64,000 nt of DNA from Nitratireductor indicus C115 (lineage in GTDB: Bacteria > Pseudomonadota > Alphaproteobacteria > Rhizobiales > Rhizobiaceae). The notes below the pieces were generated by a model. That model worked only from the letters and a program-made list of their open reading frames with translations. It did not search any database and was not told where the DNA came from. This document shows positions 18,412 through 51,763 of the stretch, piece after piece (positions within the stretch are counted from its first letter, which is position 1; each line of letters opens with the position of its first letter). The stretch is from contig NZ_AMSI01000009.1 in NCBI RefSeq assembly GCF_000300515.1, positions 154,626-218,625 of the forward strand. The letters are read 5' to 3'. A program made the translations under genes and the position numbers.

Positions 18412-18487
<76 letters not shown>

Positions 18488-18516: not shown

Positions 18517-20622
18517 TCATTCCTCGAGAATCATGACGCAGTCGACCACGCTGGGGCCTGCTTCGCCTACCAGAACGGGGTTGAGATCAAGCTCCGACAG
18601 GCGGGGTTCCATCGCCGCCGCCCAATGCGACAGGCGGAACAGCAACAGGGATATCGCTTCGCGGTCGACGGCGGGTTTGCCACGAACGCCGTCGAGAATC
18701 CTGCTCATGCGCAGGTCGTCCAGCATGGAGTACGCCTCGCTCCGATCGAACGGTGCGCGGCGGAAGGTGACATCCTTGAGAACCTCCACCAGTATGCCTC
18801 CAAAGCCCACCATGACGATCATGCCGAAGACCGGATCGCGCTGCACACCGATCACGAGCTCGACATGCCCCTCCGCCATTTCCTGGACGAGCACACCCGA
18901 CAATCGGGCATCGGGCATCGCAGTGCGGGCCCGTTCGATCAAAGCGCGATATCCGGATCGGATGCCTGCCTCGTCATCGATGTTCAAAATGACGCCATCG
19001 ATCTCGGTCTTGTGAGGAATATCCGGGGACTCGATCTTCAAGGCCACGGGGCGAGCGCTGTCGCGCCACAGGGCAACTGCGTGGTCCTCGCTCTCGGCGA
19101 GCCTGGCATGTGCCATGGGAATGCCTGCTTCGCGCAGCCAGGACGATGCCTCCACGGTGGGCTGCATGCCGGAGCCAGTGGTACCGGGACAGGCAGGGGA
19201 CCCTGATGGGCTGACGGCATCTTCGCTGGTCTTGCGTTGCATTCCGTAACGCGCAAGCGCGGCTGCGGCTTCGACGGCGCGTTCCCCCGCCGTATAGACG
19301 GGGATGTCTGCGGCGCGCAGCCCCTTTATGGCGGCGTCGGGAGCTGCGACCCAGCAAACAAGAAAGGGTTTGACGGTGCGTTGCTGGATTTCGCGGAAAA
19401 TACCGAGCAAGGGTTCGACATGGGCCGTCATCAGCTGCAGCCAGACGATCGCGACGTCGATGTCCGGATCATCGAGAAGGCTAACGACGGATTCTGTCAG
19501 CAGCTCGGGCCGGGCGACGAACTGACCGGTGACATCCACCGGATTGCCGGCTGCGCCGAAGGCAGGCATGACAGCGGCAAGTCTTGCCTGCGTTGCCGCG
19601 CCCAGTTCAGGTACTGTGAGGCCGACTTCCTCGGCGCGGTCCGCCATCATGACGCCCGCACCGCCAGACTGGGTTGCGATGCCAAGCCCGCTTCCGCAGG
19701 CGCGGCGCGGCTGGCAAAAGACTTCCAGCATGTCGAGCATCTGTTCTTCGTTGCGAGCGCGCAGGACGCCATATTGCCTTACCACAGCGTCGAACACCGC
19801 GTCGGACACGGCGAGCGCGCCGGTGTGCGACGCAGCGGCACGGGCACCTGAGGACATGCGGCCGACCTTTGTCAGAATCAGCGGCTTTCCGAGTTCCTGG
19901 CATTTGCGCGCAAGACGAACGAGAGCATCCCCATCGGTAATACCTTCGAGATAACCGGCTGCGACCTTGATGCGCGGGTCTTCGACAATTGCCATCATCA
20001 GCTCGGCAAAACTCAAATCCGCCTGATTGCCGGTGTTCAGGAAGTATCCGAGACCCAATCCCCTCTGGCGCACGAGGGCCGCTATCGCCGTGCCGAAGGC
20101 GCCTGACTGCGTGACGAAAGCGATCGGGCCGGCGCCGGTTTCGCCATCGGCATACTGGCTGAAGGTCGCGTAGACATTGTCGAATGCATTGACGAAACCG
20201 AGACAGTTGGGCCCGAGGAGAATGACCCGCGCCGCCTTTGCCGTTTCCGCCAGCCGTTTCTCCAGCACCTTGCCTTCATCACCCATCTCACCAAAGCCTG
20301 AGGAGAAGATGACGGCGGTGCGGATACCCTTCCTGCCGAGTTTCTCGACGCAATCGCACACATGGGCGGCGGGCAGGGCGATGATCGCCAGGTCGGCGGC
20401 TTCGGGAAGCGCCTCGATGCTCGGATAGCAGACAAGGCCCGCTATCTCCTCGTATTTGGGATTAACCGGCAGGATGCGCCCGGCATAACCTTTTTCGATC
20501 AGATGCTTCAGGGGGCGTCCGTTGACCTTGCCGAAGTCTGAGGAGGCGCCGATGACGGCTATCGATTTCGGATTTAAAAGCCGGCTAATAGTCTCGCGGC
20601 GGTCGGGGTTTGCATAGGTCAT
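18517..20622 (-). CDS. ADP-forming acyl-CoA synthetase (acetate-CoA ligase family)
   Basis: 701 residues, a fused alpha-beta type NDP-forming acyl-CoA synthetase. The CoA-binding Rossmann domain comes first (NPKSIAVIGASSDFGKVNG), followed by the succinyl-CoA-ligase-like part with the phospho-His motif SHTGALAVSD. A C-terminal ATP-grasp follows, containing ALKIESPDIPHKTEIDGV with the second conserved His. It would activate a carboxylic acid with CoA and ATP. It is the last gene of the minus-strand set ech-gcdH-acs, 10 bases after gcdH, so it probably activates the substrate used by those enzymes. I propose a sulfonated carboxylate (inference). Confidence 0.9.
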   Translation of the reverse strand: MTYANPDRRETISRLLNPKSIAVIGASSDFGKVNGRPLKHLIEKGYAGRILPVNPKYEEIAGLVCYPSIEALPEAADLAIIALPAAHVCDCVEKLGRKGIRTAVIFSSGFGEMGDEGKVLEKRLAETAKAARVILLGPNCLGFVNAFDNVYATFSQYADGETGAGPIAFVTQSGAFGTAIAALVRQRGLGLGYFLNTGNQADLSFAELMMAIVEDPRIKVAAGYLEGITDGDALVRLARKCQELGKPLILTKVGRMSSGARAAASHTGALAVSDAVFDAVVRQYGVLRARNEEQMLDMLEVFCQPRRACGSGLGIATQSGGAGVMMADRAEEVGLTVPELGAATQARLAAVMPAFGAAGNPVDVTGQFVARPELLTESVVSLLDDPDIDVAIVWLQLMTAHVEPLLGIFREIQQRTVKPFLVCWVAAPDAAIKGLRAADIPVYTAGERAVEAAAALARYGMQRKTSEDAVSPSGSPACPGTTGSGMQPTVEASSWLREAGIPMAHARLAESEDHAVALWRDSARPVALKIESPDIPHKTEIDGVILNIDDEAGIRSGYRALIERARTAMPDARLSGVLVQEMAEGHVELVIGVQRDPVFGMIVMVGFGGILVEVLKDVTFRRAPFDRSEAYSMLDDLRMSRILDGVRGKPAVDREAISLLLFRLSHWAAAMEPRLSELDLNPVLVGEAGPSVVDCVMILEE

Positions 20623-20632
20623 TGGCGCGGCC

Positions 20633-21850
20633 CTAGAATGACGAGATATTGGTCTGGGCGCGCCCGAGAACGAGCGCGTGGATGTCGTGCGTGCCTTCGA
20701 GCGTGTTGACGGTTTCCATGTTCATCAGGTGGCGGATGACGTGGTATTCGTCGGAAATGCCGTTGCCGCCATGAATGTCGCGCGCCATGCGCGTTATCTC
20801 CAGAGCCTTTCCGGCATTGTTTCTCTTCAACAGGGAAACCATCTCGGGGCTTGCCTTTCCCTCATCGCGCAGGCGGCTCAGATGGATACATGACAACAGG
20901 GCGAGCGTGATTTCGGTCTGCATGTCTGCGAGCTTTTTCTGGACCAACTGGTTCGCTGCCAGCGGTTTTCCAAACTGCTTTCGATCCATCGCGTATTGCC
21001 GCGAGGTCTGCCAACAGAATTCCGCCGCACCGACAGCTCCCCAGCAAATGCCGAAACGGGCATTGTTTAGACAGCCGAATGGTGCCCCGATGCCTTTTGC
21101 ACCGGGCAACAAATTCTCATCGGGAACGAAGACATTGTCCATGTGGATCTGTCCCGTGGGAGAAGCGCGGACGGAAAACTTGCCTTCGATCTTGCTTGTG
21201 CCGAGACCTTCCATGCCGCGCTCAAGAATGAAGCCGCGGACGGTTCCTTCGTCGTCTTTCGCCCAGACAATCATGATGTCGGCTATGGGTGCATGGGTGA
21301 TCCATGTCTTGTTTCCGGTAAGGCGATAACCCCCGTCGACCTTGCGGGCGCGGGAATGCATGCCTCCGGGGTCGGAACCGTGATCGGGTTCCGTCAGACC
21401 GAAGCATCCCAGCATTTCCGCACGCGCCATGGCGGGCAGAAATCTCTCGCGTTGCTCTTGCGAGCCGTAGAGATAAATCGGCAGCATGCTGAGTGTGCTC
21501 TGCACGCCTAGCGCCGAGCGGAAGCTCGTGTCCACCCGTTCGAACTCGCGAGCGATCAATCCATAGGCGACATAGCTGATGCCTGCGCAACCGAAGCCTT
21601 CAATCGTTGCCCCGAGGAAACCAAGGTCGGCTATTTCCCGCATGACCTCGATGTCGAAGGTCTCATTGCGGTTCGATTCCAGAATACGCGGCATCAGCTT
21701 GTCCTGCGCGTAGCTGCGCGCAGTGTCGCGGATCATGATTTCTTCCTGCGTCAGCAGGTCTTCGATGCGAAAGGGATCCTCCCAGGAGAACTGGGCCCCC
21801 TTCATCCGTGCCCGGTCGAGGATATGCTGCGCCGGTTCAGGATTTTCCAT
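20633..21850 (-). CDS. Glutaryl-CoA dehydrogenase-like acyl-CoA dehydrogenase
   Basis: The start is the ATG at 21850, preceded by GGGAGGAG; 405 residues. It follows glutaryl-CoA dehydrogenase almost throughout: [59 protein letters not shown]. The catalytic base aligns to Glu385. Arg111-Ser112 (FRSALGVQ) align with the Arg-Ser pair that, in the human enzyme as I recall it, binds the distal carboxylate. It may be a true gcdH or a homologue for an analogue with another anionic end group. It is preceded by an enoyl-CoA hydratase gene and followed by an acyl-CoA synthetase gene; no glutarate-specific neighbour is present. FAD-dependent, cytoplasmic. Confidence 0.9.
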
Positions 21851-21872
21851 GGGTTCTCCTCCCGAGATGCAA

Positions 21873-22673
21873 TCAGAAACGATCTCTATTGTCCGCCCTG
21901 CCGAAATCCGGCGTGCGCTTCTGGAGAAAGGCGTCGACGCCTTCCTGCTTGTCGGCTGAGCCGAGGCAGATCTGGAACCAGCGATGTTCGTAGTCGATAG
22001 CGTGGTCAATCGTCATGTCCGCGCTGCGCGAGACGGTGTCGATGATCGCCCGTGCGGAAACCGGCGCGAGCTTTGCGAGCCTGTGCGCGATGCTGGAAAC
22101 CTCCTCGTCAAATATCTCTGGCGCTACGACCCAGTCGACGATGCCCAGCTGTTCCGCCTGCATCGCATCGACATGCTCGGCGAGGAGGATCATCCGCAGG
22201 GCGCGTCCCCGGCCGACCAGCCGGGTCAGGCGCGCGGTTCCGCCATTGGCGGGCAGGATGCCGATTCGCGTTTCGGGCAGACCGACCTTCGCGGTGGCGC
22301 TTGCGATTCTCAGATGGCAGGCAAGCGCGAGTTCCAGCCCGCCGCCAAGCGCATATCCATTGATTGCCGCAAGGGTCGGAAAGGGCGCTGTCTCGAGCCT
22401 GCGGGCGAGTTCGCGCCGGGCGCCGAAGTCGATCTCGTTCCAGGGGGTGCGTCGCTGCATCTCCTCCAGATCGGCTCCTGCGGCAAAGGCCTTGTCGCCC
22501 GTGCCGCGCACCACCAGCACGCGCGTGCCGGAGGGAAGATTGCGGACGGCATCGAGAGCCTCCGCGATCATCTGATTGTTCAGCGCGTTCAGCACGTCGG
22601 GCCTGTCGAAGGTCAGAAATGCCTTGGCCCCTTCCTGGTGAAACCTGATCGTCTGATAGTCGGACATAGTCAT
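21873..22673 (-). CDS. Enoyl-CoA hydratase/isomerase family protein
   Basis: About 266 residues; the start is uncertain between ATG at 22673 and 22667. The crotonase fold is clear: [13 protein letters not shown] (CoA/oxyanion loop), [24 protein letters not shown], the catalytic region [28 protein letters not shown] and the usual C-terminal helices. The Glu in GLPETRIG corresponds to one catalytic Glu of hydratases; the other position is occupied by an Asn-Gly segment, so assignment as hydratase versus isomerase is not certain. It is the first enzyme gene of the minus-strand unit, downstream of a strong palindrome at 22745-22763. Confidence 0.88.
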
Positions 22674-22744
22674 CAAAATCCCGGTGAGGCCCACCTAGCT
22701 AGTAAGACGAGCTTTTCTGGTCCAATTTATTTTGATGACAATGA

Positions 22745-22763
22745 TTATTCAGAACCTGAATAA
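22745..22763. promoter_or_regulatory. Palindromic operator upstream of the ech-gcdH-acs unit
   Basis: TTATTCAG-AAC-CTGAATAA is a perfect inverted repeat with 8-base arms and a 3-base spacer. It lies 72-90 bases before the enoyl-CoA hydratase start, downstream of the LysR gene. It contains T-N11-A spacing expected of LysR sites and is too AT-rich to be a terminator. The adjacent LysR protein is the likely binder (inference). Confidence 0.65.
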
Positions 22764-22821
22764 AACATGCGGTGGCGATGTACCGCTTTGTCCAAAGCAG
22801 GACCTGACTTTCGCGCACAGG

Positions 22822-23727
22822 CTAGAGATTTTCGCACAGGGCGATGAGGTGATTGCGCAGCCAGCGGTGGGCAGGATCGGCATCGTGCGTGTCATGCCAG
22901 ATGAGAAACACCGGAAACTCGGGCGTGCGCACAGGAACCGTATAGGTCTTCAGGCGGAAATGATCCGCGTAGATGAAGGCCATTCTGCGCGGCAGCGTTG
23001 CAAGGAGGTTGGAGCGCTGAACCACTGCCGGCATGGAGAGGAAATGCGGAACGGTGAGCGCGATGTCCCGCTTCAATCCCCGCTTGTTGAGCGCGAGATC
23101 GATCATGGGTCGGGATTTTCGTCGTGGGGTTATGACAACGTGCTGGAGATCGAGATAGCTGTCGAGGGTGAGTTGCTCCCCGAGCTTCGGATGATCGATG
23201 CGGGAAAGCGTCACCAGACCTTCGGTGAGAACGCATTTGCTGACGAAGCCCTCGCCCTGCAGGGCGAAATAATCCAGTGCGAGGTCAACTGTTCCTTCGC
23301 GAAGTTCGCGCGTCAACAATGAACTCGGCTCAGGCCGGATCTGGATGTGGATGCCGGGCGCGGCCTCCGCCAGCCAGTCGATGAAGCGTGGAATCAGTAC
23401 GGTTTCGCCATAATCCTCGACGGCTATGACGAATTCGCGGTTGGATTTGGAATAGTCGAACTCCTCATCGCCACGGAAACCCCGCTCCAGGAGTTCCAGA
23501 GCCTGGCGAATGGGATCGCGCAGTGACTTGGCGCGCGGCGTCGGCACCATGCCACTCCCTTCGCGCTTGAATAGCGGGTCGTCGACGGTGTGGCGCAGAC
23601 GCGCCAATGCATTCGACACTGCCGGCTGGGAAAGGTTGAGGCGTAACGCCGCCCTTGAGATGCTGCGCTCGGAATAGACCGCGTCGAAAACCAATAACAG
23701 GTTGAGGTCCATCGATCTGAGATTCAT
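22822..23727 (-). CDS. LysR family transcriptional regulator
   Basis: 301 residues from the ATG at 23727, which has GAGGAG about 6 bases upstream. The N-terminal helix-turn-helix reads MDLNLLLVFDAVYSERSISRAALRLNLSQPAVSNALARLRHTVDDPLFKREG, and a LysR effector domain follows (FVIAVEDYGETVLIPRFIDWL, VDLALDYFALQGEG). It resembles the NodD/SyrM-like branch. It lies between the divergent sulfonate-type operon (23881 onward) and the ech-gcdH-acs unit and could control both. Confidence 0.93.
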   Translation of the reverse strand: MNLRSMDLNLLLVFDAVYSERSISRAALRLNLSQPAVSNALARLRHTVDDPLFKREGSGMVPTPRAKSLRDPIRQALELLERGFRGDEEFDYSKSNREFVIAVEDYGETVLIPRFIDWLAEAAPGIHIQIRPEPSSLLTRELREGTVDLALDYFALQGEGFVSKCVLTEGLVTLSRIDHPKLGEQLTLDSYLDLQHVVITPRRKSRPMIDLALNKRGLKRDIALTVPHFLSMPAVVQRSNLLATLPRRMAFIYADHFRLKTYTVPVRTPEFPVFLIWHDTHDADPAHRWLRNHLIALCENL

Positions 23728-23776
23728 GAAAGCTCCTCCTCGTGGCACGATCACAATATTTAGCCTGTCAATAAAA

Positions 23777-23791
23777 TCTATTCCCTATAGA
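23777..23791. promoter_or_regulatory. Candidate LysR site in the divergent promoter region
   Basis: TCTAT-TCCCT-ATAGA is a perfect 5-base-arm inverted repeat, containing T-N11-A spacing, in the AT-rich gap between the lysR gene and the thiolase-like gene. Its half-site differs from the palindrome at 22745-22763, so whether both bind the same protein is open. Confidence 0.5.
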
Positions 23792-23880
23792 AATTAGACA
23801 AATAATCCTCTCCTGCACATCCTTGGCTCGGATAATGAAGGGCCGGCATGCATTCGTTGCCCGCCCAGGGAGGAGAATTC

Positions 23881-25089
23881 ATGCGAGGAAAGGTAGCCAT
23901 TGTCGGCTATGGCCGGACGCCCTATAGCCGGCTGAAGCCGGGCGAGCCCGTGCTTACGGTGGATGAGTACATCGCCTGGGCGGCTGAACTGGCGCTTGAA
24001 CGGGCGGGTATGTCGAAATCCGATTTCGATGGTCAAGGGCTTGGCGTTTCGCATGCCGAAGTGGCTCATACCGTCAACTGGTCGGCGGCGACGGCGGAAA
24101 ATCTGGGCATCAGTCCGAACGCCCTGATCCGTGGCGATCAGGGAGGGTGTTCGGCCACATCGATGCTCATCCGCGCTGCGACATTGATCGAGGCCGGCGT
24201 GATTGACAGGGCCCTGATCGTGGGAGCGGACACGCCCCTCAGCATGCCTTCTCTTGCACCGGGTCTGCCATTGTCGCCAGAGCGGACGCGCGGCGTCTTC
24301 TGGGATTTCCAGGGGCCATTCGGGGTCATGGGAGCGACGGCCCAGTTCGCGCTGATATTGCGCCGCTACATGCATGAACATCAGGTGACGCCCGAGCAGC
24401 TCGGCAAGGTGGCGGTCACCAACCGGTATCATGCGTCGTTGAATCCCGGTGCAATCTACCGGAAGCCGTTCACGCTGCAGGAATATCTGGATTCGCGGAT
24501 GCTATCGGATCCGATCCGGCTCTTCGATTGCGTGCCGATCGTGAATGGCGGGCTGGCCTATATCGTGACCTCGGCCGAATCCGCCAAGGCCATCACGGAC
24601 AGGCCTGTCTATGTGCTCGGCTTCGGCGAAACCAACAATTTCTATTCCGGGTCGCGGGTCTTTCCCGATGTGACCGTTACCGGTTTTTCGGAGTCGGCGC
24701 CGCGTGCCATGGAAATGGCGGGCGTCGGGCACGACGATATCGATTTCCTTCAGCCCTATGACGACTACCCCTTCATTTCCATGAAAACCATCGAGGATTG
24801 GGGGTTCTGCAAGAAAGGCGAGGGCGGCAAATTCCTTGAGGAACACGACCTGCGGTTCGACGGCGATTTTCCGATGTCCACCGACGGCGGGCAACTCTCC
24901 GGCGGGCAGCCCGGCGGTGCCAATGGCGGTTTCATGCCGCTCGTGGAAGGCGTGACGCAATTGCGGGGTGAGGCCGAGGGGCGGCAGGTCCCGAATGCCG
25001 GCATCGGTGCCGTCTGCGGTTTTGGCGGCATCCCCTATGGGCGTCCGGGGCGGAGCTGCATTTCAGTCATTCTCGGATCGGAGGCGTGA
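23881..25089 (+). CDS. Thiolase-like protein, candidate retro-aldolase (SCP2-thiolase/Ltp2-like)
   Basis: 402 residues from the ATG at 23881, directly after GGGAGGAG. The thiolase fold is recognisable: Cys90 (GGCSATSM) sits at the nucleophile position and Cys379 (AVCGFGG) at the second Cys position. The catalytic His of the GHP motif is replaced by Gln343 (GGQPGG). It overlaps or adjoins a DUF35 Zn-ribbon gene. Thiolase-like/DUF35 pairs form complexes in archaeal acetoacetyl-CoA chemistry, in BbsAB, and in the steroid retro-aldolases Ltp2/ChsH2. With the altered His and no 3-hydroxyacyl-CoA dehydrogenase nearby, I infer carbon-carbon cleavage of a 3-hydroxyacyl-CoA to an aldehyde and acetyl-CoA rather than thiolysis. 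The family call is firm; the reaction is inference. Confidence 0.85.
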   Translation: MRGKVAIVGYGRTPYSRLKPGEPVLTVDEYIAWAAELALERAGMSKSDFDGQGLGVSHAEVAHTVNWSAATAENLGISPNALIRGDQGGCSATSMLIRAATLIEAGVIDRALIVGADTPLSMPSLAPGLPLSPERTRGVFWDFQGPFGVMGATAQFALILRRYMHEHQVTPEQLGKVAVTNRYHASLNPGAIYRKPFTLQEYLDSRMLSDPIRLFDCVPIVNGGLAYIVTSAESAKAITDRPVYVLGFGETNNFYSGSRVFPDVTVTGFSESAPRAMEMAGVGHDDIDFLQPYDDYPFISMKTIEDWGFCKKGEGGKFLEEHDLRFDGDFPMSTDGGQLSGGQPGGANGGFMPLVEGVTQLRGEAEGRQVPNAGIGAVCGFGGIPYGRPGRSCISVILGSEA

Positions 25090-25091
25090 AG

Positions 25092-25508
25092 ATGGAAAGC
25101 ATAGCGGCCAAACCCCTGCCGGACATTACCGACCTGACGCGCCCGTTCTGGACTGCGGCGCGCGAAGGGCGGCTCGTGATGCAAAAGTGCCCCAGCTGCG
25201 GCACGGTGAATTTCCATCCGAAGCCCTGGTGCATCGAATGCGGGGATCGTGGGCTGGAATGGACCGAAATGCAGACTGGCGGAACGGTCTATTCCTACAC
25301 GGTCTCCCACTCCGTTGCGATGAATCATCTGGGCTGGCAGGCGGAGCTGCCCGTCATCATGTGCCTGATCGATATCGATGGCGGCGCAAGGATGTATGCG
25401 CAGGTCACCGACGTGGCCGCGGAGGATATGCAAATCGGCATGAGGGTGAAGGCCTATTTCGAGCCGATCAGTGAAGAAGCGGGCATCCCGAAATTCCGGC
25501 CTGCATGA
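25092..25508 (+). CDS. DUF35 Zn-ribbon/OB-fold partner of the thiolase-like protein
   Basis: 138 residues. The ATG at 25092 is preferred over a GTG at 25086 because GGAGG at 25079-25083 is then 8 bases upstream. The protein has the rubredoxin-like zinc ribbon CPSCGTVNFHPKPWCIECG (C-x2-C-x12-C-x2-C) followed by an OB-fold (VYSYTVSHSV, PVIMCLIDIDGGARMYAQV, IGMRVKAYFEP). Such proteins bind thiolase-fold partners and channel or position acyl-CoA. The gene follows the thiolase gene by 2 bases, so the two are surely co-translated. Confidence 0.92.
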   Translation: MESIAAKPLPDITDLTRPFWTAAREGRLVMQKCPSCGTVNFHPKPWCIECGDRGLEWTEMQTGGTVYSYTVSHSVAMNHLGWQAELPVIMCLIDIDGGARMYAQVTDVAAEDMQIGMRVKAYFEPISEEAGIPKFRPA

Positions 25509-25586
25509 GCTTTCCGAAGGGGGGCGCCAAGAGCGGCTCCACCCTTTGGACTGGAGAAGCACGCATTTTCTGGGAGGAGAATTGCT

Positions 25587-26609
25587 ATGAAAATCGCATC
25601 GAACTCGATAAAACGCGGCCTCGCCATCGGCGCGATTGCACTGGCCGCAGCATCCCTGTCGCAGGGCAGTGCCCTGTCGCAGGAAACGACACAGATCAAT
25701 CTTATCAGCGCTCCGTTCGGCACCGGCTCCTATGTAATGGGATCGGCGCTTGAGGAGATTTCCAAGAAGAGCGATATCGGTGTCACGATCACGCATTCGG
25801 AAAGCCCCGGCTTCGTATTCAACATCAAGAAGCTGGACAATGAGCCGGAGTTGAAAACCAACACGATCGTGGGGTCGGGCGGTGGCGTGCAGGGTCTTGC
25901 GAAAGCAGGCGTCGAACCCTTCGACAAGAAGTATCCGGGCTTCAAGCTCATCGCCAACTACAATCTGAATTCCAGCTGGCTGGCGACGCTCGACAAGAAC
26001 ATCAAGACGATCGAGGACCTGAAGGGAAAGAAGGTCGCGGTCGGACGGCGGGCGCAGATCAACTGGGCCATTCAGCCGGTCGCAATCCTGAGGGATGGCT
26101 GGGGTCTCAGCGACAAGGACGTCAATATTCAATATGTCGGAACGAAGGAATCGGTGGACGCGCTGCTCGACGGCACGGCCGACGCAGCGATCGTCGGCGG
26201 CTACATCGATCCGGTCAGCGACAGGATGATGCTGAGCCCGCAAACCATCGAGTTTCTGGCATCGGGGCGCAATCCGCATCATCTCGACTGGGGTGCGGAC
26301 ATGGTCACGAAGGCGCGTGAGGCCGGTGTAAGCATGGCCAATGTGACGATACCGGCCGGTGTCGATCCCACCATCACCGAGCCCATGGCGGGCTTCGCCG
26401 ACAGCGTTGCCTGGATGGTCGCACCGGAGTTTCCCGAAGAGGTCGCCTACAAGGTGACCAAGCTGATTCTCGATAACATTGAGAAGTTCGGCGAATACCA
26501 GGCGACAGGCAAGCTGATGTCTCCCAAGGGCATGATCTACGGATGGGATCCAGAGGACATTCATCCGGGAGCGCTGCGCGCCTATCGGGAAGCCGGCCTC
26601 ATCGATTAG
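25587..26609 (+). CDS. TAXI family TRAP transporter substrate-binding protein
   Basis: 340 residues with a Sec signal (MKIASNSIKRGLAIGAIALAAASLSQGSALSQE). The mature N-terminus (TQINLISAPFGTGSYVMGSALEEISKKS) is typical of TAXI binding proteins, and the body has VGSGGGVQGLAKAG and the GRRAQINW segment. It has a GGGAGGAGAATT leader before the ATG. It lies in the operon thiolase-DUF35-TAXI-permease-xsc-pta, so its ligand is presumably the compound degraded by these enzymes, possibly a sulfonate (inference). Confidence 0.92.
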   Translation: MKIASNSIKRGLAIGAIALAAASLSQGSALSQETTQINLISAPFGTGSYVMGSALEEISKKSDIGVTITHSESPGFVFNIKKLDNEPELKTNTIVGSGGGVQGLAKAGVEPFDKKYPGFKLIANYNLNSSWLATLDKNIKTIEDLKGKKVAVGRRAQINWAIQPVAILRDGWGLSDKDVNIQYVGTKESVDALLDGTADAAIVGGYIDPVSDRMMLSPQTIEFLASGRNPHHLDWGADMVTKAREAGVSMANVTIPAGVDPTITEPMAGFADSVAWMVAPEFPEEVAYKVTKLILDNIEKFGEYQATGKLMSPKGMIYGWDPEDIHPGALRAYREAGLID

Positions 26610-26627
26610 CCGGCATCAGCATATTGG

Positions 26628-26658
26628 GGAGCCGCTCGAATGTACTCGAAGCGGCTCC
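26628..26658 (+). other. Intercistronic hairpin between TAXI and permease genes
   Basis: GGAGCCGCT at 26628-26636 pairs perfectly with AGCGGCTCC at 26650-26658, with an inner CGA/TCGA pair. A short T run (GTTTTC) follows 7 bases later. It may be a leaky terminator or an mRNA-stabilising element that makes binding protein more abundant than permease. A comparable hairpin lies at the same place in the second TAXI operon. Confidence 0.65.
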
Positions 26659-26719
26659 TCCCGAGTTTTCAAGAAACAACTCACTGCGCTTTGCCCGCGC
26701 CTAACGGAGCATCGAAGCC

Positions 26720-28621
26720 ATGCAGATCAGATTGTTGGACGGCGCCATTCTTGCGGTCGGGCTGATGATGGTCGCATATCAGATGGTATCGACCCAGTAC
26801 CTGTTTCTCGGTTCCTACGAACACCAAGCCGTGCATCTCGGCTTCATCTTCGTCTTGCTGTTCCTGAACCAGGCGCGCAATGCGCGGGGCGCGTTCGGAA
26901 CCATATGCAATATCGGGCTGGCCGTGCTTGGCGTAGTTGCGGCCGGTTATGTGTTTGTGAACATCGTCCATCTGGAAGAAGTCTTCGGCTATCCCGAAGG
27001 GATAGACGTGGTGGTGGGCGTTCTCCTGATTGCGCTCGTGGTGATTGCCACCCGGGCCACATGGGGATGGACGCTGCCCATCGTGTCGGCGATCTTCGTC
27101 GGTTACTTTCTGTGGGGCCACCTCATTCCGGGGCACCTGCATCACCGTCCGTTCAATTTCGACTATGTCGTCTCTTATCTGAGCATCGGGCTGTCGGGCA
27201 TTTTCGGCACCTTTCTCGGCATTTCCGCCAATCAGGTTTTCCTGTTCGTGGTATTCGGTTCGCTGCTCGGCATCATCAAGGTAAATGACTTTTTCCTCGA
27301 GGCAGGCAAGATCGCCGGTAAGGCCTTCCGCGGCGGCCCCGGCCAGACTGCAGTGGTTTCAAGCGGCTTCATCGGCATGATTTCGGGCGCGGCCGTCGCC
27401 AATGTCGCGGTCACCGGCGCCTTCACGATCCCTTACATGAAACAGGTCGGCTACAAACCCGAGCATGCGGGAGCCATCGAGGCAACGGCATCGACGGGCG
27501 GGCAATTGATGCCCCCGGTCATGGGGGCAGCCGCCTTCCTCATGGCATCCTTTCTCGGCGTTTCCTACGATGCGGTGATGCTGGCGGGCATACTGCCTGC
27601 CATCCTGTATTTCTGGGGCGTCATGCTGGGCGTGCAGTTCCTGGCCGTGCGTTGCGACATCCGCCCACCGCTCGAGCGGATCAACTACCGCGTTCTGCTG
27701 CGGCGCCTGCCCCTGTTCGCGCTTCCGCTGGCGGTGCTCGTCACCATGCTGATCCTGCAATACAGCCCGGCGAACGCGGCATTCTGGGCGATCATCCTTG
27801 CCGTGGCCCTGTCCTATGTCGATCCGCAGACGCGGCCGAAATACCCGCATCTTTGCCGCAGCCTCACCAGTGGGGCGATCATCGGGGCGCAGATCGGCAT
27901 TTCCCTGGCTATCGTCGGACTGGTGGCCCAGACGCTGATCACGACCGGCCTTGGCAACAAGATCGCAAGCCTTGTCGAGCTTCTGAGCGGAGGCAATCTT
28001 CTGATCGGGCTCCTGCTGACGATGGTCGTCTCGATCATTCTGGGGTGCGGCGTGCCGACCAGCGCAGCCTATACGCTGGTTGCCATCGTGGTCATTCCCT
28101 CGGTGATCAAGATGGGGGTCGATCCGATGGCCGCGCATTTCTTCTCATTCTACTTCGCCGTCATCTCGTCCCTCACGCCGCCGGTGGCGCTTGCGGCCCT
28201 GGCGGGTGCGGGGCTTGCCGGGGCGCCCTATTTCAAGACTTCGCTTTCGGCTGCAAAACTGGCCATTTCCGGCTTCATCATTCCGTTCCTGATCATCTTC
28301 AACCCGCTGCTGACCTTTAATCCGGTCAGTTGGGCCTGGGGTATCGGGACCATTGTCGCCGTCCCTCTCGGCATGACTGCGCTTACCGCAGCGATCTACG
28401 GGTGCGGGTTGACGATGTTCACGGCCCGGGAACGGCTCCTTGCCGCCGTGTCGGCGTTCTGCCTGCTTGGATATTCGGTGTTCCGACACGTCGATGAACT
28501 ACCGATCGAATATCCGATGCTGGTGATTGGCTGTGTCGTGTTCGCCTGGGTGCTGATTTCCCAGATCAGGGCCAATCAGGAAAGCGGCAAGGCGATGCGT
28601 CCGGAATTTCAGAACACATAG
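26720..28621 (+). CDS. TRAP transporter permease, fused small and large subunits (TAXI type)
   Basis: 633 residues, about 16 hydrophobic segments. The N-terminal four-helix DctQ-like part is fused to a DctM-like part with the motifs GGPGQTAVVSSGFIGMISGAAVANVAVTGAFTIP, STGGQLMPPVMGAAAF and LGCGVPTSAAYTLVAIVV. Length and fusion are normal for partners of TAXI binding proteins. It uses an ion gradient for uptake. The xsc gene follows after 71 bases. Confidence 0.94.
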   Translation: MQIRLLDGAILAVGLMMVAYQMVSTQYLFLGSYEHQAVHLGFIFVLLFLNQARNARGAFGTICNIGLAVLGVVAAGYVFVNIVHLEEVFGYPEGIDVVVGVLLIALVVIATRATWGWTLPIVSAIFVGYFLWGHLIPGHLHHRPFNFDYVVSYLSIGLSGIFGTFLGISANQVFLFVVFGSLLGIIKVNDFFLEAGKIAGKAFRGGPGQTAVVSSGFIGMISGAAVANVAVTGAFTIPYMKQVGYKPEHAGAIEATASTGGQLMPPVMGAAAFLMASFLGVSYDAVMLAGILPAILYFWGVMLGVQFLAVRCDIRPPLERINYRVLLRRLPLFALPLAVLVTMLILQYSPANAAFWAIILAVALSYVDPQTRPKYPHLCRSLTSGAIIGAQIGISLAIVGLVAQTLITTGLGNKIASLVELLSGGNLLIGLLLTMVVSIILGCGVPTSAAYTLVAIVVIPSVIKMGVDPMAAHFFSFYFAVISSLTPPVALAALAGAGLAGAPYFKTSLSAAKLAISGFIIPFLIIFNPLLTFNPVSWAWGIGTIVAVPLGMTALTAAIYGCGLTMFTARERLLAAVSAFCLLGYSVFRHVDELPIEYPMLVIGCVVFAWVLISQIRANQESGKAMRPEFQNT

Positions 28622-28642
28622 CGCTTTTATCAAATCGCCTTG

Positions 28643-28661
28643 CCCGCGGTCGCACCGCGGG
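28643..28661 (+). other. Intercistronic hairpin before xsc
   Basis: CCCGCGGT-CGC-ACCGCGGG is a perfect 8-base-pair stem with a 3-base loop, extendable outward by GCC/GGC pairs. No T run follows, so it is not a standard terminator; it may set differential stability between transporter and xsc-pta segments. Confidence 0.6.
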
Positions 28662-28692
28662 GGCGAGGCCTCGACCCAGGAGAATTGTTGCC

Positions 28693-30477
28693 ATGACCAA
28701 GATGACGACAGAGGAAGCCTTCGTAAAAGTCCTTCAGATGCATGGTATCGAGCATGCGTTCGGGATCATCGGCTCGGCCATGATGCCGGTTTCCGACCTG
28801 TTTCCGCAGGCGGGGATCACCTTCTGGGATTGTGCGCATGAAACCAATGCGGGGATGATGTGCGACGGTTTCATCCGTTCCACCGGCAAGATGGCGATGG
28901 CCATCGCGCAGAACGGGCCCGGTGTTACCGGCTTTGTGACCGCGGTGAAGACGGCCTACTGGAATCACTCGCCGATGTTGCTTGTGACGCCGCAGGCCGC
29001 CAACAAGACAATTGGTCAGGGCGGCTTTCAGGAGATGGAGCAGCTCCGGCTATTTGCCGACTGCGTATGCTATCAGGAGGAGGTTCGCGATCCCTCAAGG
29101 GTTGCGGAAGTTCTCAACCGTGTGATCCAGAAGGCCTGGCGGGCCTCCGCGCCGGTGCAGATCAACATCCCCCGGGATATCTGGACGAGCGTCATCGATG
29201 TCGAACTTCCGCAGATCGTGCAGTTCGAGCGGCCCTCGGGCGGCGAAGAGGCCGTGGCGAAAGCCGCGCGTCTTTTGTCCGAGGCCAGGTTTCCCGTCAT
29301 TCTATCGGGTGCGGGGGTCGTGCTTTCGGGTGCAATTTCCGATCTCGTTCGACTGGCGGAGCGCCTCGATGCGCCCGTCTGTTCGAACTATCAGCACAAT
29401 GACAGCTTTCCCGGTTCGCACCCGCTTGCAATGGGGCCGCTCGGCTACAACGGATCGAAGGCCGCGATGGAGACCATCGCGAAGGCGGATGTCGTGCTCG
29501 CGCTTGGCACCAGGCTCAATCCGTTTTCGACATTGCCGGGGTATGGCATCGATTACTGGCCGGCCGGTGCAAAGGTCATTCAGGTCGATATCAACGCCGA
29601 CAGGATTGGCCTGACCAAGAAGGTCTCCATCGGGATCGAGGGTGATGCGGGCAAGGTTGCGCGCGGAATTCTCTCGCAGCTTTCTCCGGAGGCTGGCGAC
29701 GAGGGGCGAATCGAGCGGCGTGATCTCGTCGCCCTGACCAAGTCGCGCTGGGCGCAGGAGCTTTCATCGCTCGATCATGAACTCGATGATCCGGGCACCG
29801 TGTGGAACGAGGAAGCCCGCCAGCGGGATTCCGATCTGATGAGCCCGCGGCAGGCCTGGCGCGCCATTCAGGTCGGGCTGCCGAGAGATGCGGTCATCTC
29901 GTCGGATATCGGCAACAATTGCGCCATCGGCAATGCCTATCCAATGTTCGACGAAGGGCGCAAATATCTCGCGCCCGGCCTTTTCGGGCCATGCGGATAC
30001 GGCTTTCCGTCGATCCTTGGCGCCAAGATCGGCAACCCGGATACACCCGTCGTGGGCTTTGCCGGGGATGGCGCGTTCGGCATTTCCATGAACGAGATGA
30101 CAGCGTGCGGCCGCAAGGGGTGGCCGGCCATCACAATGGTCATCTTCCGCAATTATCAATGGGGCGCGGAAAAGCGGAACACCACGCTCTGGTACGACAA
30201 TAATTTCGTCGGAACTGAACTGGATCGGGGTACCTCCTATGCCGGCATTGCAAAAGCATGTGGCGCGCATGGTGTGACGGTTCGCTCGACCGAGCAGCTT
30301 ACCGAAGCGTTGGCAGATGCTGTCGAACGGCAAATGAAGAAGGGTGAGACCACCTTTATCGAGGTGCTTCTCAACCAGGAGCTCGGTGAACCCTTCCGGC
30401 GCGATGCAATGAAGAAGCCGGTGGTTGTCGCAGGCATCGACCGGTCCGACATGCAGCCGCAGAAGATGGCGGTCTGA
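28693..30477 (+). CDS. xsc: Sulfoacetaldehyde acetyltransferase Xsc
   Basis: 594 residues, the normal Xsc length. It keeps the Xsc-specific stretches that distinguish it from acetolactate synthase: MTTEEAFVKVLQMHGIEHAF, GSAMMPVSDLFPQAGITFWD, KTAYWNHSPMLLVTPQAANK, QGGFQEMEQLRLFADCV, and the cofactor motif GDGAFGISMNEMTACGRKGW. Xsc uses TPP and phosphate to split sulfoacetaldehyde into sulfite and acetyl phosphate. An AGGAGA site lies about 10 bases upstream. The pta gene follows after 38 bases, the classic pairing in sulfonate catabolism. None of the known suppliers of sulfoacetaldehyde lies in this window. Confidence 0.96.
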   Translation: MTKMTTEEAFVKVLQMHGIEHAFGIIGSAMMPVSDLFPQAGITFWDCAHETNAGMMCDGFIRSTGKMAMAIAQNGPGVTGFVTAVKTAYWNHSPMLLVTPQAANKTIGQGGFQEMEQLRLFADCVCYQEEVRDPSRVAEVLNRVIQKAWRASAPVQINIPRDIWTSVIDVELPQIVQFERPSGGEEAVAKAARLLSEARFPVILSGAGVVLSGAISDLVRLAERLDAPVCSNYQHNDSFPGSHPLAMGPLGYNGSKAAMETIAKADVVLALGTRLNPFSTLPGYGIDYWPAGAKVIQVDINADRIGLTKKVSIGIEGDAGKVARGILSQLSPEAGDEGRIERRDLVALTKSRWAQELSSLDHELDDPGTVWNEEARQRDSDLMSPRQAWRAIQVGLPRDAVISSDIGNNCAIGNAYPMFDEGRKYLAPGLFGPCGYGFPSILGAKIGNPDTPVVGFAGDGAFGISMNEMTACGRKGWPAITMVIFRNYQWGAEKRNTTLWYDNNFVGTELDRGTSYAGIAKACGAHGVTVRSTEQLTEALADAVERQMKKGETTFIEVLLNQELGEPFRRDAMKKPVVVAGIDRSDMQPQKMAV

Positions 30478-30515
30478 GCCGCGCGAAACCGGAAGCTTCA
30501 AGGGCGATATGATCG

Positions 30516-31550
30516 ATGAAGCCGCTTCTTCGAATCTACGATATCGCCCGCACGGCTCAACGGTATATTCTTTTGCCGGAGGGGGACGACCCGCGTATTC
30601 AGCGGGCCGCGGTCCGCGCCGTGCGGGAGGGACTGGCGCGCGTGACGTTGCTCGGGGACCCGTCCGTCCTGAGGCCGGCGCTGGAAGAGCTGGGTGCGGG
30701 CGGTCTCGTCGGGATCATCGATCCCGATCGTGCAGACGATATCGATGAGCTCGTACGGGAATATCACCGCCTGAGGGCGCACAAGGGGGTGTCCTTGCAG
30801 CAGGCGCGGGCCGGCGTTGCTGATCCGATGATACAGGCGGCATTGCGGGTTCGTCTTGGGCAGGCCGACGGCACGGTTGGTGGAGCAAGCCATACCACCT
30901 CGCAGACCCTGCGTGCTGCGTTGCAGCTCATAGGGCCTGCGAGCGGCGTGTCGGTGGTTTCGAGTTTCTTTCTGATGCTCTCCTGCGAAACCCGGGCGGC
31001 GGTGAAGGGCGGCATGATCTTTGCCGATTGCGGGTTGAACGTTCTGCCAGATGCGGGGGAGCTTGCTTCGATAGCGAGAGCTTCCGCCGTCACGTGCCGC
31101 CAGCTCCTGAACGAGGAACCGCGCGTGGCGATGCTCTCGTTTTCAACAGCGGGTTCGGCGGAGCATGCAAGCCTCGGCAGGATACGCCAGGCGGTGTCGA
31201 TGATCCGTGAAGCGGAGCCGGACCTCGAGATCGATGGGGAATTGCAATTCGATGCGGCCATCGACGATGCGGTGCGCAAGCACAAGGCGCCCATGAGCCG
31301 GCTTTCGGCGCGTCCCAATGTCTTCATCTTCCCGGACCTGGCTTCCGGTAATATCGGTTACAAGATCGCCCAGCGTCTTGGCGGGCTGGACGCCATTGGG
31401 CCGATCCTCCAGGGGCTGGCGCTTCCTGCGAACGACCTGTCGCGGGGATGCAGTGTCGATGACGTGCTGGCCGCCATCGCGATCACCGCAGTGCAGGCGG
31501 CAAGTGCCGGAACGGTTCAGGCCAGAAGGTCCATTTCGAGCCGGATGTAA
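30516..31550 (+). CDS. pta: Phosphate acetyltransferase
   Basis: 344 residues, the short Pta form without an N-terminal DRTGG domain. PTA/PTB motifs are present: ILLPEGDDPRIQRAA, DGTVGGASHTTSQTLRAALQLIG, MIFADCGLNVLPDAGELA, and NVFIFPDLASGNIGYKIAQRLGG near the C-terminus. It converts the acetyl phosphate from Xsc to acetyl-CoA. The last 34 bases overlap the convergent GntR gene. Confidence 0.95.
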   Translation: MKPLLRIYDIARTAQRYILLPEGDDPRIQRAAVRAVREGLARVTLLGDPSVLRPALEELGAGGLVGIIDPDRADDIDELVREYHRLRAHKGVSLQQARAGVADPMIQAALRVRLGQADGTVGGASHTTSQTLRAALQLIGPASGVSVVSSFFLMLSCETRAAVKGGMIFADCGLNVLPDAGELASIARASAVTCRQLLNEEPRVAMLSFSTAGSAEHASLGRIRQAVSMIREAEPDLEIDGELQFDAAIDDAVRKHKAPMSRLSARPNVFIFPDLASGNIGYKIAQRLGGLDAIGPILQGLALPANDLSRGCSVDDVLAAIAITAVQAASAGTVQARRSISSRM

Positions 31551-34051: not shown

Positions 34052-34088
34052 GCGTTCCCTCCTGCACGAACTTGAGAAAGCACCAGAA

Positions 34089-35477
34089 ATGACGATTGAA
34101 ATCCGCAATCCCGCTGCTCCGCAAACCATTGTCGCGACCTATGAGGAAATTGGGGATAGGGCGCTCGATGCAATCATCGAACGGGCTCGCGCAGCCCAGG
34201 CGGGCTGGAAGGCTGTGCCCCAGCCCGAGCGCGGGAAGCGTGTCGCTGCCTTTCTCGATGCGCTCGAGGCGGCAACGGAGGAAATAGCGGCTTCGATCAC
34301 GAGGGAGATGGGAAAACCGCTCGCGGAGGCGCGCGGCGAGATCGGCAAAGCCATCGGCGAGGGCCGCATGACCGTCGCACGGGCAGGGGCTCCCATCGGC
34401 GAGGTCTTTCCCTCGCAGGTGCCGGGAACGGTGGCCTATACGACGCGCAGGCCGCGGGGTGTGGTGCTTGGCATCAATCCCTGGAATTTCCCGTTCAGCA
34501 CCCCGGTGCGCAAGGCAATCCCTGCGCTGGTCTATGGCAATGCGATCATTCTAAAGCCCGCGAGCCTGACGCCGGGTGCATTGGTCATCATGGAACGGAT
34601 CGCTGCCGAGACGCTGCCTGAAGGGTTGTTGCAGGTCGTCATCGGCTCGGGCGCGCTGGCGCAGACACTGTGCGAGCATTCGGGTATCGACGCCATCAGC
34701 TTCACCGGCTCGGTCGGGGTCGGCAAGCGCGTGGCGATCGCAGCGGCGAGCCATCTGGCGGAGGTGTCGCTGGAGCTCGGCGGTAAGAACCCGGCAATCC
34801 TCAACGATGCGAACGATCTCGACAAGGTGCTCGACCAGATCATGGCCGCCGCATTCGCGGTGTGCGGACAGCGCTGTACTGCGGTCAGCCGGGTCATCGT
34901 CAACGAGAAGATCGCCGAGGCCGTCACGGCGGGCCTAGCAGCGCGTGCCCGGGCCATCGCGCCAGGCGACCCCTCGTTGGAAGGGGTCAGAATGGGGCCG
35001 CTCTCGAGCCGCAAGCAGCTGGAGGATGTCGCCGGTTTTGTCGCGCGGGCGCGTGCGGCGGGGGCGACCGTGGCGGCGGGCGGTGAGAAGATCGATACGC
35101 CCGAGGGCGGCTTCTTCTACGCGCCGACCATTCTTTCCTCAGTGACGCGGGACATGGAAGTGGCGCGCGAAGAGGTGTTCGGGCCCGTGCTTTCGGTGAT
35201 CTCCTACGCGGATATCGACGAGGCGCTGTCCATCGCCAATGAGGTTTCCTATGGCCTGGCATCCTGCCTGTATTCCGAGCAGGCACCGGTGATCGAGCGT
35301 TTCGCGGCTGAAAGCGAAAGCGGCATGCTGCATATCAATGCCGGCAGCTTTCCGGAAAACCATCTGCCGTTCGTCGGCGTGAAAGACAGTGCGCTCGGTG
35401 TCGGCGGATCGAACGGCCCCTCGACCATCCAGTTCTACACGTCGGAACATACGGTCTATCGCCGCGCCATGGCTTGA
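34089..35477 (+). CDS. Aldehyde dehydrogenase (succinate-semialdehyde dehydrogenase-like)
   Basis: 462 residues from the ATG at 34089. Motifs: INPWNFPFSTPVRK (Asn of the oxyanion hole), SFTGSVGVGKRV (NAD loop), LELGGKNPAIL (general-base Glu), FAVCGQRCTAV (catalytic Cys), EEVFGPVLSV. Similarity is to the GabD/ALDH5-type, but the exact substrate cannot be assigned. It is paired with the upstream GMC oxidoreductase, giving an alcohol-to-acid module. Confidence 0.93.
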   Translation: MTIEIRNPAAPQTIVATYEEIGDRALDAIIERARAAQAGWKAVPQPERGKRVAAFLDALEAATEEIAASITREMGKPLAEARGEIGKAIGEGRMTVARAGAPIGEVFPSQVPGTVAYTTRRPRGVVLGINPWNFPFSTPVRKAIPALVYGNAIILKPASLTPGALVIMERIAAETLPEGLLQVVIGSGALAQTLCEHSGIDAISFTGSVGVGKRVAIAAASHLAEVSLELGGKNPAILNDANDLDKVLDQIMAAAFAVCGQRCTAVSRVIVNEKIAEAVTAGLAARARAIAPGDPSLEGVRMGPLSSRKQLEDVAGFVARARAAGATVAAGGEKIDTPEGGFFYAPTILSSVTRDMEVAREEVFGPVLSVISYADIDEALSIANEVSYGLASCLYSEQAPVIERFAAESESGMLHINAGSFPENHLPFVGVKDSALGVGGSNGPSTIQFYTSEHTVYRRAMA

Positions 35478-51706: not shown

Positions 51707-51763
51707 TCTCGGATGTGTGCCGATGTGGTAATGACCGCAGACATCCAACCGAGGAAGGATCGC

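What the first reader, a model, noticed from the sequence alone, without database searches (positions are those of the whole stretch)
18517..31550. Candidate undescribed sulfonate pathway: beta-oxidation plus retro-aldol cleavage feeding Xsc
Seen: xsc and pta share an operon with a thiolase-like/DUF35 pair and a TAXI-TRAP transporter; divergent from it are an enoyl-CoA hydratase, a glutaryl-CoA-dehydrogenase-like enzyme and an ADP-forming acyl-CoA synthetase, with one LysR gene between. Known: Xsc acts on sulfoacetaldehyde, and its suppliers (taurine transaminase or dehydrogenase, isethionate, sulfoacetate or sulfopyruvate enzymes) are absent from the window. Inference: 4-sulfobutyrate, the sulfonate analogue of glutarate, would be activated, oxidised to 4-sulfocrotonyl-CoA, hydrated to 3-hydroxy-4-sulfobutyryl-CoA, and split into acetyl-CoA and sulfoacetaldehyde. 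Xsc and Pta finish the route with sulfite and a second acetyl-CoA. The absence of a 3-hydroxyacyl-CoA dehydrogenase fits retro-aldol rather than thiolytic cleavage. Longer even-chain omega-sulfocarboxylates could enter the same way.
Basis: partly seen in the sequence, partly recalled or inferred. Interest (0 to 1): 0.92.

Follow-up and report, generated by a model that had tools for sequence, protein, structure and literature searches.

The report
Probable new route to sulfoacetaldehyde
A widely scattered bacterial gene set that looks built to shorten a sulfonated fatty-acid-like compound occurs almost only in genomes that also carry the enzyme that splits off sulfite, which points to an undescribed sulfonate-degrading pathway whose exact starting compound still has to be shown at the bench.

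Summary
The genes are as described. Orthologues of the thiolase-like protein (68-92% identical) were found in 42 other genomes, mostly with the same acyl-CoA module. Xsc over its curated cut-off is in 40 of those 42 genomes, against 77 of 297 and 29 of 250 background genomes; an unrelated accessory gene is in 8 of 43. Beside the module, xsc occurs in only 3 of 42 stretches besides the window. The dehydrogenase keeps the arginine that holds the omega-anion of glutaryl-CoA (36 of 36) but has lost the tyrosine beside it (Leu, 36 of 36); same-genome glutaryl-CoA dehydrogenases keep it (9 of 9). The thiolase-like protein has the Tyr-Asp motif of steroid retro-aldolases. Best reading: an omega-sulfonated acyl-CoA, most simply 4-sulfobutyryl-CoA, is dehydrogenated, hydrated and split to acetyl-CoA and sulfoacetaldehyde for Xsc. 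Substrate and cleavage chemistry are inferred. Against: acylating sulfoacetaldehyde dehydrogenase (SauS) is also enriched, four stretches carry a hydroxyacyl-CoA dehydrogenase, 18 of 42 show no crotonase, and a possible isethionate dehydrogenase lies downstream of pta.

The parts
18517..20622 (-). ADP-forming acyl-CoA synthetase (single-chain), proposed to activate the sulfonated carboxylate
   Evidence: Pfam Succ_CoA_lig, CoA_binding, ATP-grasp_5; closest solved relatives are 4-hydroxybutyrate- and 3-hydroxypropionate-CoA ligases, ADP-forming; found in 37 of 42 related stretches, 33 of them at 50% identity or more and four at 39%
20633..21850 (-). Glutaryl-CoA-dehydrogenase-like enzyme with Arg94 kept and Tyr369 and Ser98 changed; proposed 4-sulfobutyryl-CoA dehydrogenase
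   Evidence: 1sir 581 bits; found in 35 of 42 related stretches; residue counts against same-genome paralogues
21873..22667 (-). Crotonase-fold enoyl-CoA hydratase with both catalytic glutamates
   Evidence: ECH_1 189 bits; GxELAL and LPE motifs; catalytic role of the two Glu recalled; some crotonase in 24 of 42 related stretches
22822..23727 (-). LysR-type regulator between the two transcription units
   Evidence: LysR domains; relative in 31 of 42 related stretches
23728..23880 (.). Divergent intergenic region with a dyad TCTAT-N5-ATAGA, also in L029-L033; probable LysR site
   Evidence: intergenic sequences printed side by side; read by eye, not scored
23881..25089 (+). Thiolase-like protein with YDDY motif, proposed retro-aldolase
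   Evidence: invariant Met12 and Y304-D305-D306; best solved relative by profile 9myr
25086..25508 (+). DUF35/ChsH2 partner (zinc ribbon plus OB fold)
   Evidence: zf-ChsH2 and OB_ChsH2_C; found beside the thiolase-like gene in 40 of 42 stretches, the other two ending at the contig end
25587..26609 (+). TAXI solute-binding protein
   Evidence: TIGR02122 123 bits over cut-off; relative in 10 of 42 stretches
26720..28621 (+). Fused TRAP permease
   Evidence: TIGR02123 510 bits over cut-off
28693..30477 (+). xsc, sulfoacetaldehyde acetyltransferase
   Evidence: TIGR03457 917 bits, cut-off 676
30516..31550 (+). pta, phosphate acetyltransferase
   Evidence: TIGR00651 337 bits, cut-off 311
32423..34051 (+). 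GMC (choline-dehydrogenase-like) oxidoreductase: possible second supplier of sulfoacetaldehyde, or of the sulfonated aldehyde upstream
   Evidence: PRK02106 539 bits, below its cut-off 605; 38-47% to GMCs in nine xsc stretches
34089..35477 (+). Aldehyde dehydrogenase, substrate unknown
   Evidence: models shown are below their cut-offs, SafD only 233 of 700 bits

Best explanation
The module is a catabolic feeder of Xsc. A TAXI-TRAP transporter (other transporters elsewhere) imports an omega-sulfonated carboxylate, most simply 4-sulfobutyrate, the sulfonate analogue of glutarate. The ADP-forming synthetase makes the CoA ester. The modified glutaryl-CoA dehydrogenase oxidises it without loss of the anionic group to 4-sulfocrotonyl-CoA. 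The crotonase adds water to give 3-hydroxy-4-sulfobutyryl-CoA. The thiolase-like/DUF35 pair splits this by retro-aldol cleavage into acetyl-CoA and sulfoacetaldehyde. Xsc and Pta then give sulfite, acetyl phosphate and a second acetyl-CoA. Shown: gene content, the recurring module, co-occurrence with Xsc, and the residue changes. Inferred: every reaction, the substrate, and the direction of cleavage.
For: Genome-wide: Xsc over cut-off in 40 of 42 genomes with the thiolase-like orthologue against 77 of 297 and 29 of 250; an unrelated accessory gene, phnX, is in 8 of 43 (its own background was not measured). In the 297-genome sample the 5 carriers all have xsc against 72 of 292 others; in the 250-genome sample 3 of 3 against 26 of 247. 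Locally: xsc over cut-off in the window operon and within 10 kb in L058, L059 (with a Pta-family gene) and L060, and those three are a different Xsc subtype, about 47% identical to the window's. TauE/SafE-family (sulfite-exporter) genes lie in 8 of 42 stretches: L029-L033, L039, L063, L066 (three confirmed with Pfam). Dehydrogenase: Arg94 equivalent kept in 36 of 36, Tyr369 equivalent Leu in 36 of 36, Ser98 equivalent Gly 33 or Asn 3; nine of nine same-genome paralogues have Arg, Tyr, Ser. In glutaryl-CoA dehydrogenase that Tyr hydrogen-bonds the Arg and interacts with the carboxylate that leaves as CO2 (PMC3169403, passages). Cleavage: Tyr-Asp motif in 26 of 26, no conserved Cys, nearest solved relative by profile has the Sal-type YDCY motif. 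SauS was not found in the window's genome or in five of six related Rhizobiaceae genomes, all of which have Xsc, so there a direct route to sulfoacetaldehyde is simpler.
Against: xsc is not in the stretch around the module in 39 of 42 loci (some stretches are cut by contig ends). Not every carrier stretch has the full set: no crotonase seen in 18 of 42, no dehydrogenase in 7, no synthetase in 5, and neither of the last two in four; for L043 that is a full 21 kb stretch. SauS is in 30 of 43 genomes and, outside the seven Rhizobiaceae-type genomes, in 29 of 36 against 9 of 26 xsc-positive carrier-free genomes, which could mean a thiolytic product. Four stretches carry a 3-hydroxyacyl-CoA dehydrogenase. 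The YD motif is not special to the module: 19 of 19 distant homologues have YD. Asp stands where Sal has its catalytic Cys. The window protein and two of the other 25 aligned rows have a Cys at position 101, which one pairwise alignment puts opposite a thiolase nucleophile. A single-sequence search ranks 4u4e, a thiolase-named protein with YDSF, before 9myr. No report of 4-sulfobutyrate catabolism was found. The genomes share descent to some degree, so the counts are not independent.
Confidence: 0.5

Rival explanations
1. Thiolytic variant: the same sulfonated acyl-CoA is oxidised at C3 by a 3-hydroxyacyl-CoA dehydrogenase, the thiolase-like protein cleaves with CoA to acetyl-CoA and sulfoacetyl-CoA, SauS reduces that to sulfoacetaldehyde, and Xsc follows.
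For: SauS in 30 of 43 carrier genomes and enriched over xsc-positive carrier-free genomes of one betaproteobacterial family (the comparison set is not matched for taxonomy); SauS next to xsc beside the module in L060, and, by matching contig length, on the module's contig in the genomes of L052 and L053; hydroxyacyl-CoA dehydrogenase in L029-L031 and L069.
Against: No conserved nucleophilic Cys and Tyr in place of the thiolase His; no SauS found in the window's genome or five Rhizobiaceae relatives, three of which carry the hydroxyacyl-CoA dehydrogenase; that dehydrogenase was not found in the other 38 stretches with either of two queries (the rest of the genomes was not searched). SauS enrichment is also expected if sulfoacetaldehyde itself is the product, since SauS-type enzymes interconvert it with sulfoacetyl-CoA (PMC12890257, passages).
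Confidence: 0.17
2. Different omega-sulfonate: the module works as proposed but its natural substrate is another compound that passes through a 3-hydroxy-4-sulfoacyl-CoA (longer even-chain omega-sulfocarboxylates, hydroxylated or branched forms), and 4-sulfobutyrate is only an intermediate or analogue.
For: Transporter type changes among loci (TAXI 10 of 42, Bug/TctC-like 18 of 42 at 46% or more; ABC systems in some others, read by eye); alcohol and aldehyde dehydrogenase genes follow in the window.
Against: The dehydrogenase is of the C5-dicarboxyl-CoA class, whose chain length matches 4-sulfobutyryl-CoA.
Confidence: 0.15
3. Carboxylate reading: the module degrades glutarate or another dicarboxylate by a non-decarboxylating route and co-occurs with Xsc because sulfonate-using generalists carry many catabolic islands; xsc-pta in the window belongs to isethionate use through the downstream GMC enzyme.
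For: Glutaryl-CoA dehydrogenase family membership; xsc not near the module in 39 of 42 stretches; GMC relatives in nine of 39 xsc stretches.
Against: 40 of 42 against 12-26% background, with an unrelated accessory gene at 8 of 43; a canonical glutaryl-CoA dehydrogenase is present as well in nine of ten genomes checked; separate xsc linkage with another Xsc subtype.
Confidence: 0.15

Closest known systems
Xsc pathways (sulfoacetaldehyde acetyltransferase plus Pta) for taurine, isethionate and sulfoacetate (list of suppliers partly recalled)
   Same: Same end: sulfoacetaldehyde to sulfite and acetyl phosphate, then acetyl-CoA
   Different: Supplier would be a beta-oxidation-like module with retro-aldol cleavage, not a transaminase, alcohol dehydrogenase or SauS
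Glutaryl-CoA dehydrogenase
   Same: Sequence family, Arg94, Glu87 and Glu370 equivalents
   Different: Tyr369 to Leu, Ser98 to Gly or Asn; a second, canonical copy found in nine of ten genomes checked
Steroid side-chain aldolases Sal (CtSal) and Ltp2 with DUF35 partners
   Same: Sequence family of thiolase-like proteins, DUF35 partner, Tyr of the YDxx motif
   Different: YDDY instead of YDCY or YDHF; predicted small sulfonated substrate; separate DUF35 protein, no fused MaoC hydratase
Sulfoacetate route SauT/SauS and ADP-forming SauCD or SqwKL
   Same: CoA activation of a sulfonated acid, ADP-forming ligase class in SauCD and SqwKL (PMC12890257, passages)
   Different: Has dehydrogenase, hydratase and aldolase-like genes; SauS not found in the window's genome. 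SauCD and SqwKL sequences were not compared

Membership tests
Xsc (TIGR03457) | Score over the curated cut-off | tested here: met
   917 bits, cut-off 676
Glutaryl-CoA dehydrogenase (decarboxylating) | Arg94 and catalytic Glu370 | tested here: met
   36 of 36 rows each
Glutaryl-CoA dehydrogenase (decarboxylating) | Tyr369 that bonds Arg94 and the leaving carboxylate | tested here: not met
   Leu in 36 of 36; Tyr in nine of nine paralogues; role from PMC3169403 passages
Sal/Ltp2 retro-aldolases | Catalytic Tyr in the YDxx motif and a DUF35 partner | tested here: met
   Y304-D305-D306 in 26 of 26; DUF35 in 40 of 42 stretches; role of Tyr from PMC12329534 passages
Sal/Ltp2 retro-aldolases | Acid: Cys of YDCY (Sal) or second Tyr (Ltp2) | tested here: not met
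   Asp at the Cys place in 26 of 26; the second Tyr position was not mapped
Sal/Ltp2 retro-aldolases | Cleaves a 3-hydroxyacyl-CoA to an aldehyde or ketone and a short acyl-CoA | not testable with these tools
   needs an assay
SCP-2-type thiolase | Conserved nucleophilic Cys and His of the HDxF motif | tested here: not met
   position 100 Gly 26 of 26, position 101 Ala 22, Cys 3 (window among them), Ser 1; Tyr in place of His; register of the Cys differs by one between pairwise alignments
SauS-dependent sulfoacetate route | SauS over the NF047625 cut-off in the genome | tested here: not met
   0 in G000; 30 of 43 carrier genomes
ADP-forming acyl-CoA synthetase | NDP-forming CoA-ligase and ATP-grasp domains and a phosphorylatable His (SHT motif) | tested here: met
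   domains; His in each of the 12 commonest motif variants printed; role of the His recalled
Isethionate dehydrogenase (GMC) | Oxidises isethionate | not testable with these tools
   only 38-47% identity to GMCs of xsc stretches

The most novel reading that the evidence does not exclude
A new, horizontally spread sulfonate pathway: short omega-sulfocarboxylates, 4-sulfobutyrate first, are degraded by a neofunctionalised, non-decarboxylating glutaryl-CoA dehydrogenase and a thiolase/DUF35 retro-aldolase that releases sulfoacetaldehyde. In the window the downstream alcohol and aldehyde dehydrogenases might let it start from 4-hydroxybutane-1-sulfonate (from sulfobutyl compounds) or from products of alkane- and alkenesulfonate surfactants.
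Probability: 0.4. Interest if true: 0.85.

Novelty: new variant of a known kind. Interest (0 to 1): 0.68.

Why it matters
Xsc is a main aerobic gate from C2 sulfonates to inorganic sulfur (recalled). Its described suppliers start from C2 or C3 sulfonates (recalled); a transketolase route also makes sulfoacetaldehyde from the sulfosugar sulfoquinovose in anaerobes (PMC12890257, passages). A beta-oxidation-type supplier would open C4 and longer aliphatic sulfonates, including surfactant and sulfobutyl residues, to the same gate. It would also extend thiolase/DUF35 aldolases from steroids to small molecules, and give a marker gene to look for in genomes. Every step can be tested with purified enzymes.

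Tried and rejected
AlphaFold2 model of the thiolase-like protein from 26 orthologues: mean pLDDT 58, active-site stretch 303-327 below 50; not used, no fold search made. Island test: the 3' end of tRNA-Ala next to the synthetase gene is not repeated in the window at 14 bases or more, so no att-like copy was found there. Physical linkage as the main argument: rejected as too weak (3 of 42 stretches; chance about 0.0007 for three, 0.012 for two, if xsc were placed at random in a 5 Mb genome); replaced by the genome-wide count. Literature: searches on sulfoacetaldehyde with thiolase or DUF35, retro-aldol, beta-oxidation, 4-sulfobutyrate and Xsc with C2 sulfonates gave no such pathway (listings only, open-licence PMC library); one search was swamped by unrelated papers. 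Papers seen: passages of PMC12329534, PMC3169403 and PMC12890257; of the rest only listings. Names such as Bug/TctC, NitT/TauT, IclR, TauR, Soe and SauT for neighbour genes that were not run against a library were read by eye. The TPP enzyme beside the module in L055, L056, L063 and L066 stays unexplained. Rows dropped: of 44 loci, L071 and L072 (33-36% identical, Pseudofrankia) were left out of all module counts, though L071 was still a row in the motif scan. The thiolase alignment used 26 of 43 proteins (window and 25 of 42). Xsc stretches were fetched for the window's genome and 38 of 42 others (not G790, G815, G817, G819); of 40 stretches 39 were analysed (L086 left out), several cut by contig ends, and the xsc cluster was recognised in 35.
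Full report
What is in the window. The ten genes of the finding are present in the stated order. On the minus strand: ADP-forming acyl-CoA synthetase 18517-20622, dehydrogenase 20633-21850, crotonase 21873-22667, LysR 22822-23727. On the plus strand: thiolase-like 23881-25089, DUF35 25086-25508, TAXI 25587-26609, TRAP 26720-28621, xsc 28693-30477, pta 30516-31550. Xsc and Pta pass curated cut-offs. Forty proteins of the window were scanned against NCBIfam; no model of another Xsc supplier was passed over its cut-off in what these outputs show. Other ORFs were not scanned.

The module elsewhere. A scan of one genome per species with the thiolase-like protein gave 44 loci, 42 of them 68-92% identical. 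By record title they come from Rhizobiaceae and other Hyphomicrobiales, Oceaniglobus, many Burkholderiales, and gammaproteobacterial bins. In the stretches held, the DUF35 gene was found in 40 of 42, the synthetase in 37 (four of them only 39% identical), the dehydrogenase in 35, a LysR relative in 31, and a crotonase in 24: 11 of the window's type at 66-84%, 11 of a second type, two weaker. Eighteen show no crotonase, and four show neither dehydrogenase nor synthetase; several stretches end at contig ends, but L043 is a full 21 kb. The transporter changes: TAXI in 10 of 42 (L029-L034, L051-L054), a tctC/Bug-like protein in 18, ABC systems in some others. So the window's acyl-CoA genes and thiolase-like pair belong to one recurring module. 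xsc-pta looks like a late addition to it in the window: the close relatives L029-L034 have no xsc in their stretches.

Link to Xsc. Xsc over the TIGR03457 cut-off was found in 40 of the 42 carrier genomes; one more is just below the cut-off, and the last is a 2.4 Mb bin without a match at the threshold used. In the window genome's family 77 of 297 genomes have it; in the family of one betaproteobacterial carrier 29 of 250. Binomial tails for 40 of 42 at these rates are about 2e-21 and 3e-35, but shared descent makes them too small. Two samples drawn by taxonomy point the same way: 5 of 5 carriers against 72 of 292 others in the first family (Fisher 0.001; one of the five is the window's own genome, and by their places the others are among the 42), and 3 of 3 against 26 of 247 in the second (0.0014; one of the three is the centre of the sample and all three are among the 42). 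An unrelated accessory gene, phosphonoacetaldehyde hydrolase, is in 8 of 43 (its background was not measured). Near the module, xsc over cut-off lies within 10 kb in L058, L059 and L060; these are a different Xsc subtype from the window's, so at least two linkages arose apart. By matching contig lengths, xsc also sits on the module's contig in the genomes of L036, L045, L052 and L053, roughly 25 to 100 kb away. TauE/SafE-family genes lie in eight stretches; L029, L039 and L066 were confirmed with Pfam.

The dehydrogenase. It is 59-61% identical to nine same-genome paralogues and scores 581 bits against human glutaryl-CoA dehydrogenase. By that alignment, window Arg111 is Arg94, Gly115 is Ser98 and Leu384 is Tyr369. 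Arg is kept in 36 of 36 module rows (window and 35 loci). Tyr is Leu in 36 of 36, Ser is Gly in 33 and Asn in 3. In the nine paralogues, from nine of ten genomes searched, all three are the canonical residues. [quoted passage not shown] An enzyme that still holds an omega-anion but has lost this Tyr fits an anion that cannot leave as CO2. 4-Sulfobutyryl-CoA is the sulfonate isostere of glutaryl-CoA. That Ser98 touches the carboxylate is recalled. A non-decarboxylating dehydrogenase of a dicarboxylate would also fit this part.

The cleavage enzyme. PMC12329534 (passages) gives Tyr of the YDxx motif as the catalytic base of Sal and Ltp2, with Cys (Sal) or another Tyr (Ltp2) as acid, and says that Sal has Gly in place of the thiolase nucleophile. 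The module protein has Tyr-Asp-Asp in 26 of 26 aligned rows. A profile of these rows hits 9myr best (2.2e-63), then 4u4e, ahead of 7yvy and the benzoylsuccinyl-CoA thiolase 7pxp, which show HDAF at this place; with the window protein alone 4u4e (named thiolase, YDSF) comes first and 9myr second. 9myr shows YDCY; that it is the CtSal structure is my inference. The nucleophile place is Gly in 26 of 26 in one register; in the neighbouring register it is Ala 22, Cys 3, Ser 1, the window being one of the three with Cys. So thiolysis is unlikely for the family but not excluded for the window protein. The YD motif is also in 19 of 19 distant homologues, so it marks a wider group. The structure model was too poor to use.

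Results that do not fit neatly. SauS over its cut-off is in 30 of 43 genomes (a protein search gives the same number). Outside the seven Rhizobiaceae-type genomes it is in 29 of 36, against 9 of 26 xsc-positive and 0 of 34 xsc-negative carrier-free genomes of the sampled betaproteobacterial family (Fisher 0.0005 for 29 of 36 against 9 of 26; the sets are not matched for taxonomy). Either these are sulfonate specialists, or SauS works on the module's product. Four stretches have a hydroxyacyl-CoA dehydrogenase. But in the window's genome and five of six related Rhizobiaceae no SauS was found while Xsc was, so Xsc, not SauS, is the common partner. The missing crotonase in 18 stretches means that, if the scheme is right, hydration must there be done by an enzyme encoded elsewhere or of another family.

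Conclusion. The pathway would be a new combination of known enzyme kinds. No description of it was found in the searches named, which cover only an open-licence library.

Noticed in passing
L108:1306-12014 (window genome C1, second xsc): The genome's other xsc and pta follow a short-chain dehydrogenase, a fused pyruvate-dehydrogenase-like E1 alpha-beta protein, a sulfolactaldehyde-reductase-like protein (269 bits, cut-off 348), a protein that looks DctP-like by eye, and a dihydrolipoamide acyltransferase. This could be another undescribed supplier using lipoate-linked cleavage.
   Followed up: partly
18412-18487: tRNA-Ala (CGC) ends about 30 bases from the 3' end of the synthetase gene; none of the seven same-genus genomes searched has the thiolase-like protein at the threshold used, so the locus may be a recent island, though no repeat of the tRNA end was found in the window.
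   Followed up: partly
47962-55467: A second TAXI-TRAP pair with a PRK08199-type TPP enzyme (841 bits, cut-off 539), a D-amino-acid-dehydrogenase-like protein and a PRK07475 protein: another catabolic cluster of unknown substrate.
   Followed up: no
L055, L056, L063, L066 (for example L066:16200-17837): A TPP-dependent enzyme, about 27% identical to Xsc in L055, L063 and L066, sits beside the module in four stretches.
   Followed up: no
23728-23880: The divergent promoter region keeps a TCTAT-N5-ATAGA dyad followed by TAGACAAATA in the window and in L029-L033; L034 has a variant (by eye).
   Followed up: partly
32423-35477: GMC oxidoreductase plus aldehyde dehydrogenase pair behind pta; GMC relatives lie near the module in L037, L038 and L058 and in nine xsc stretches.
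   Followed up: partly
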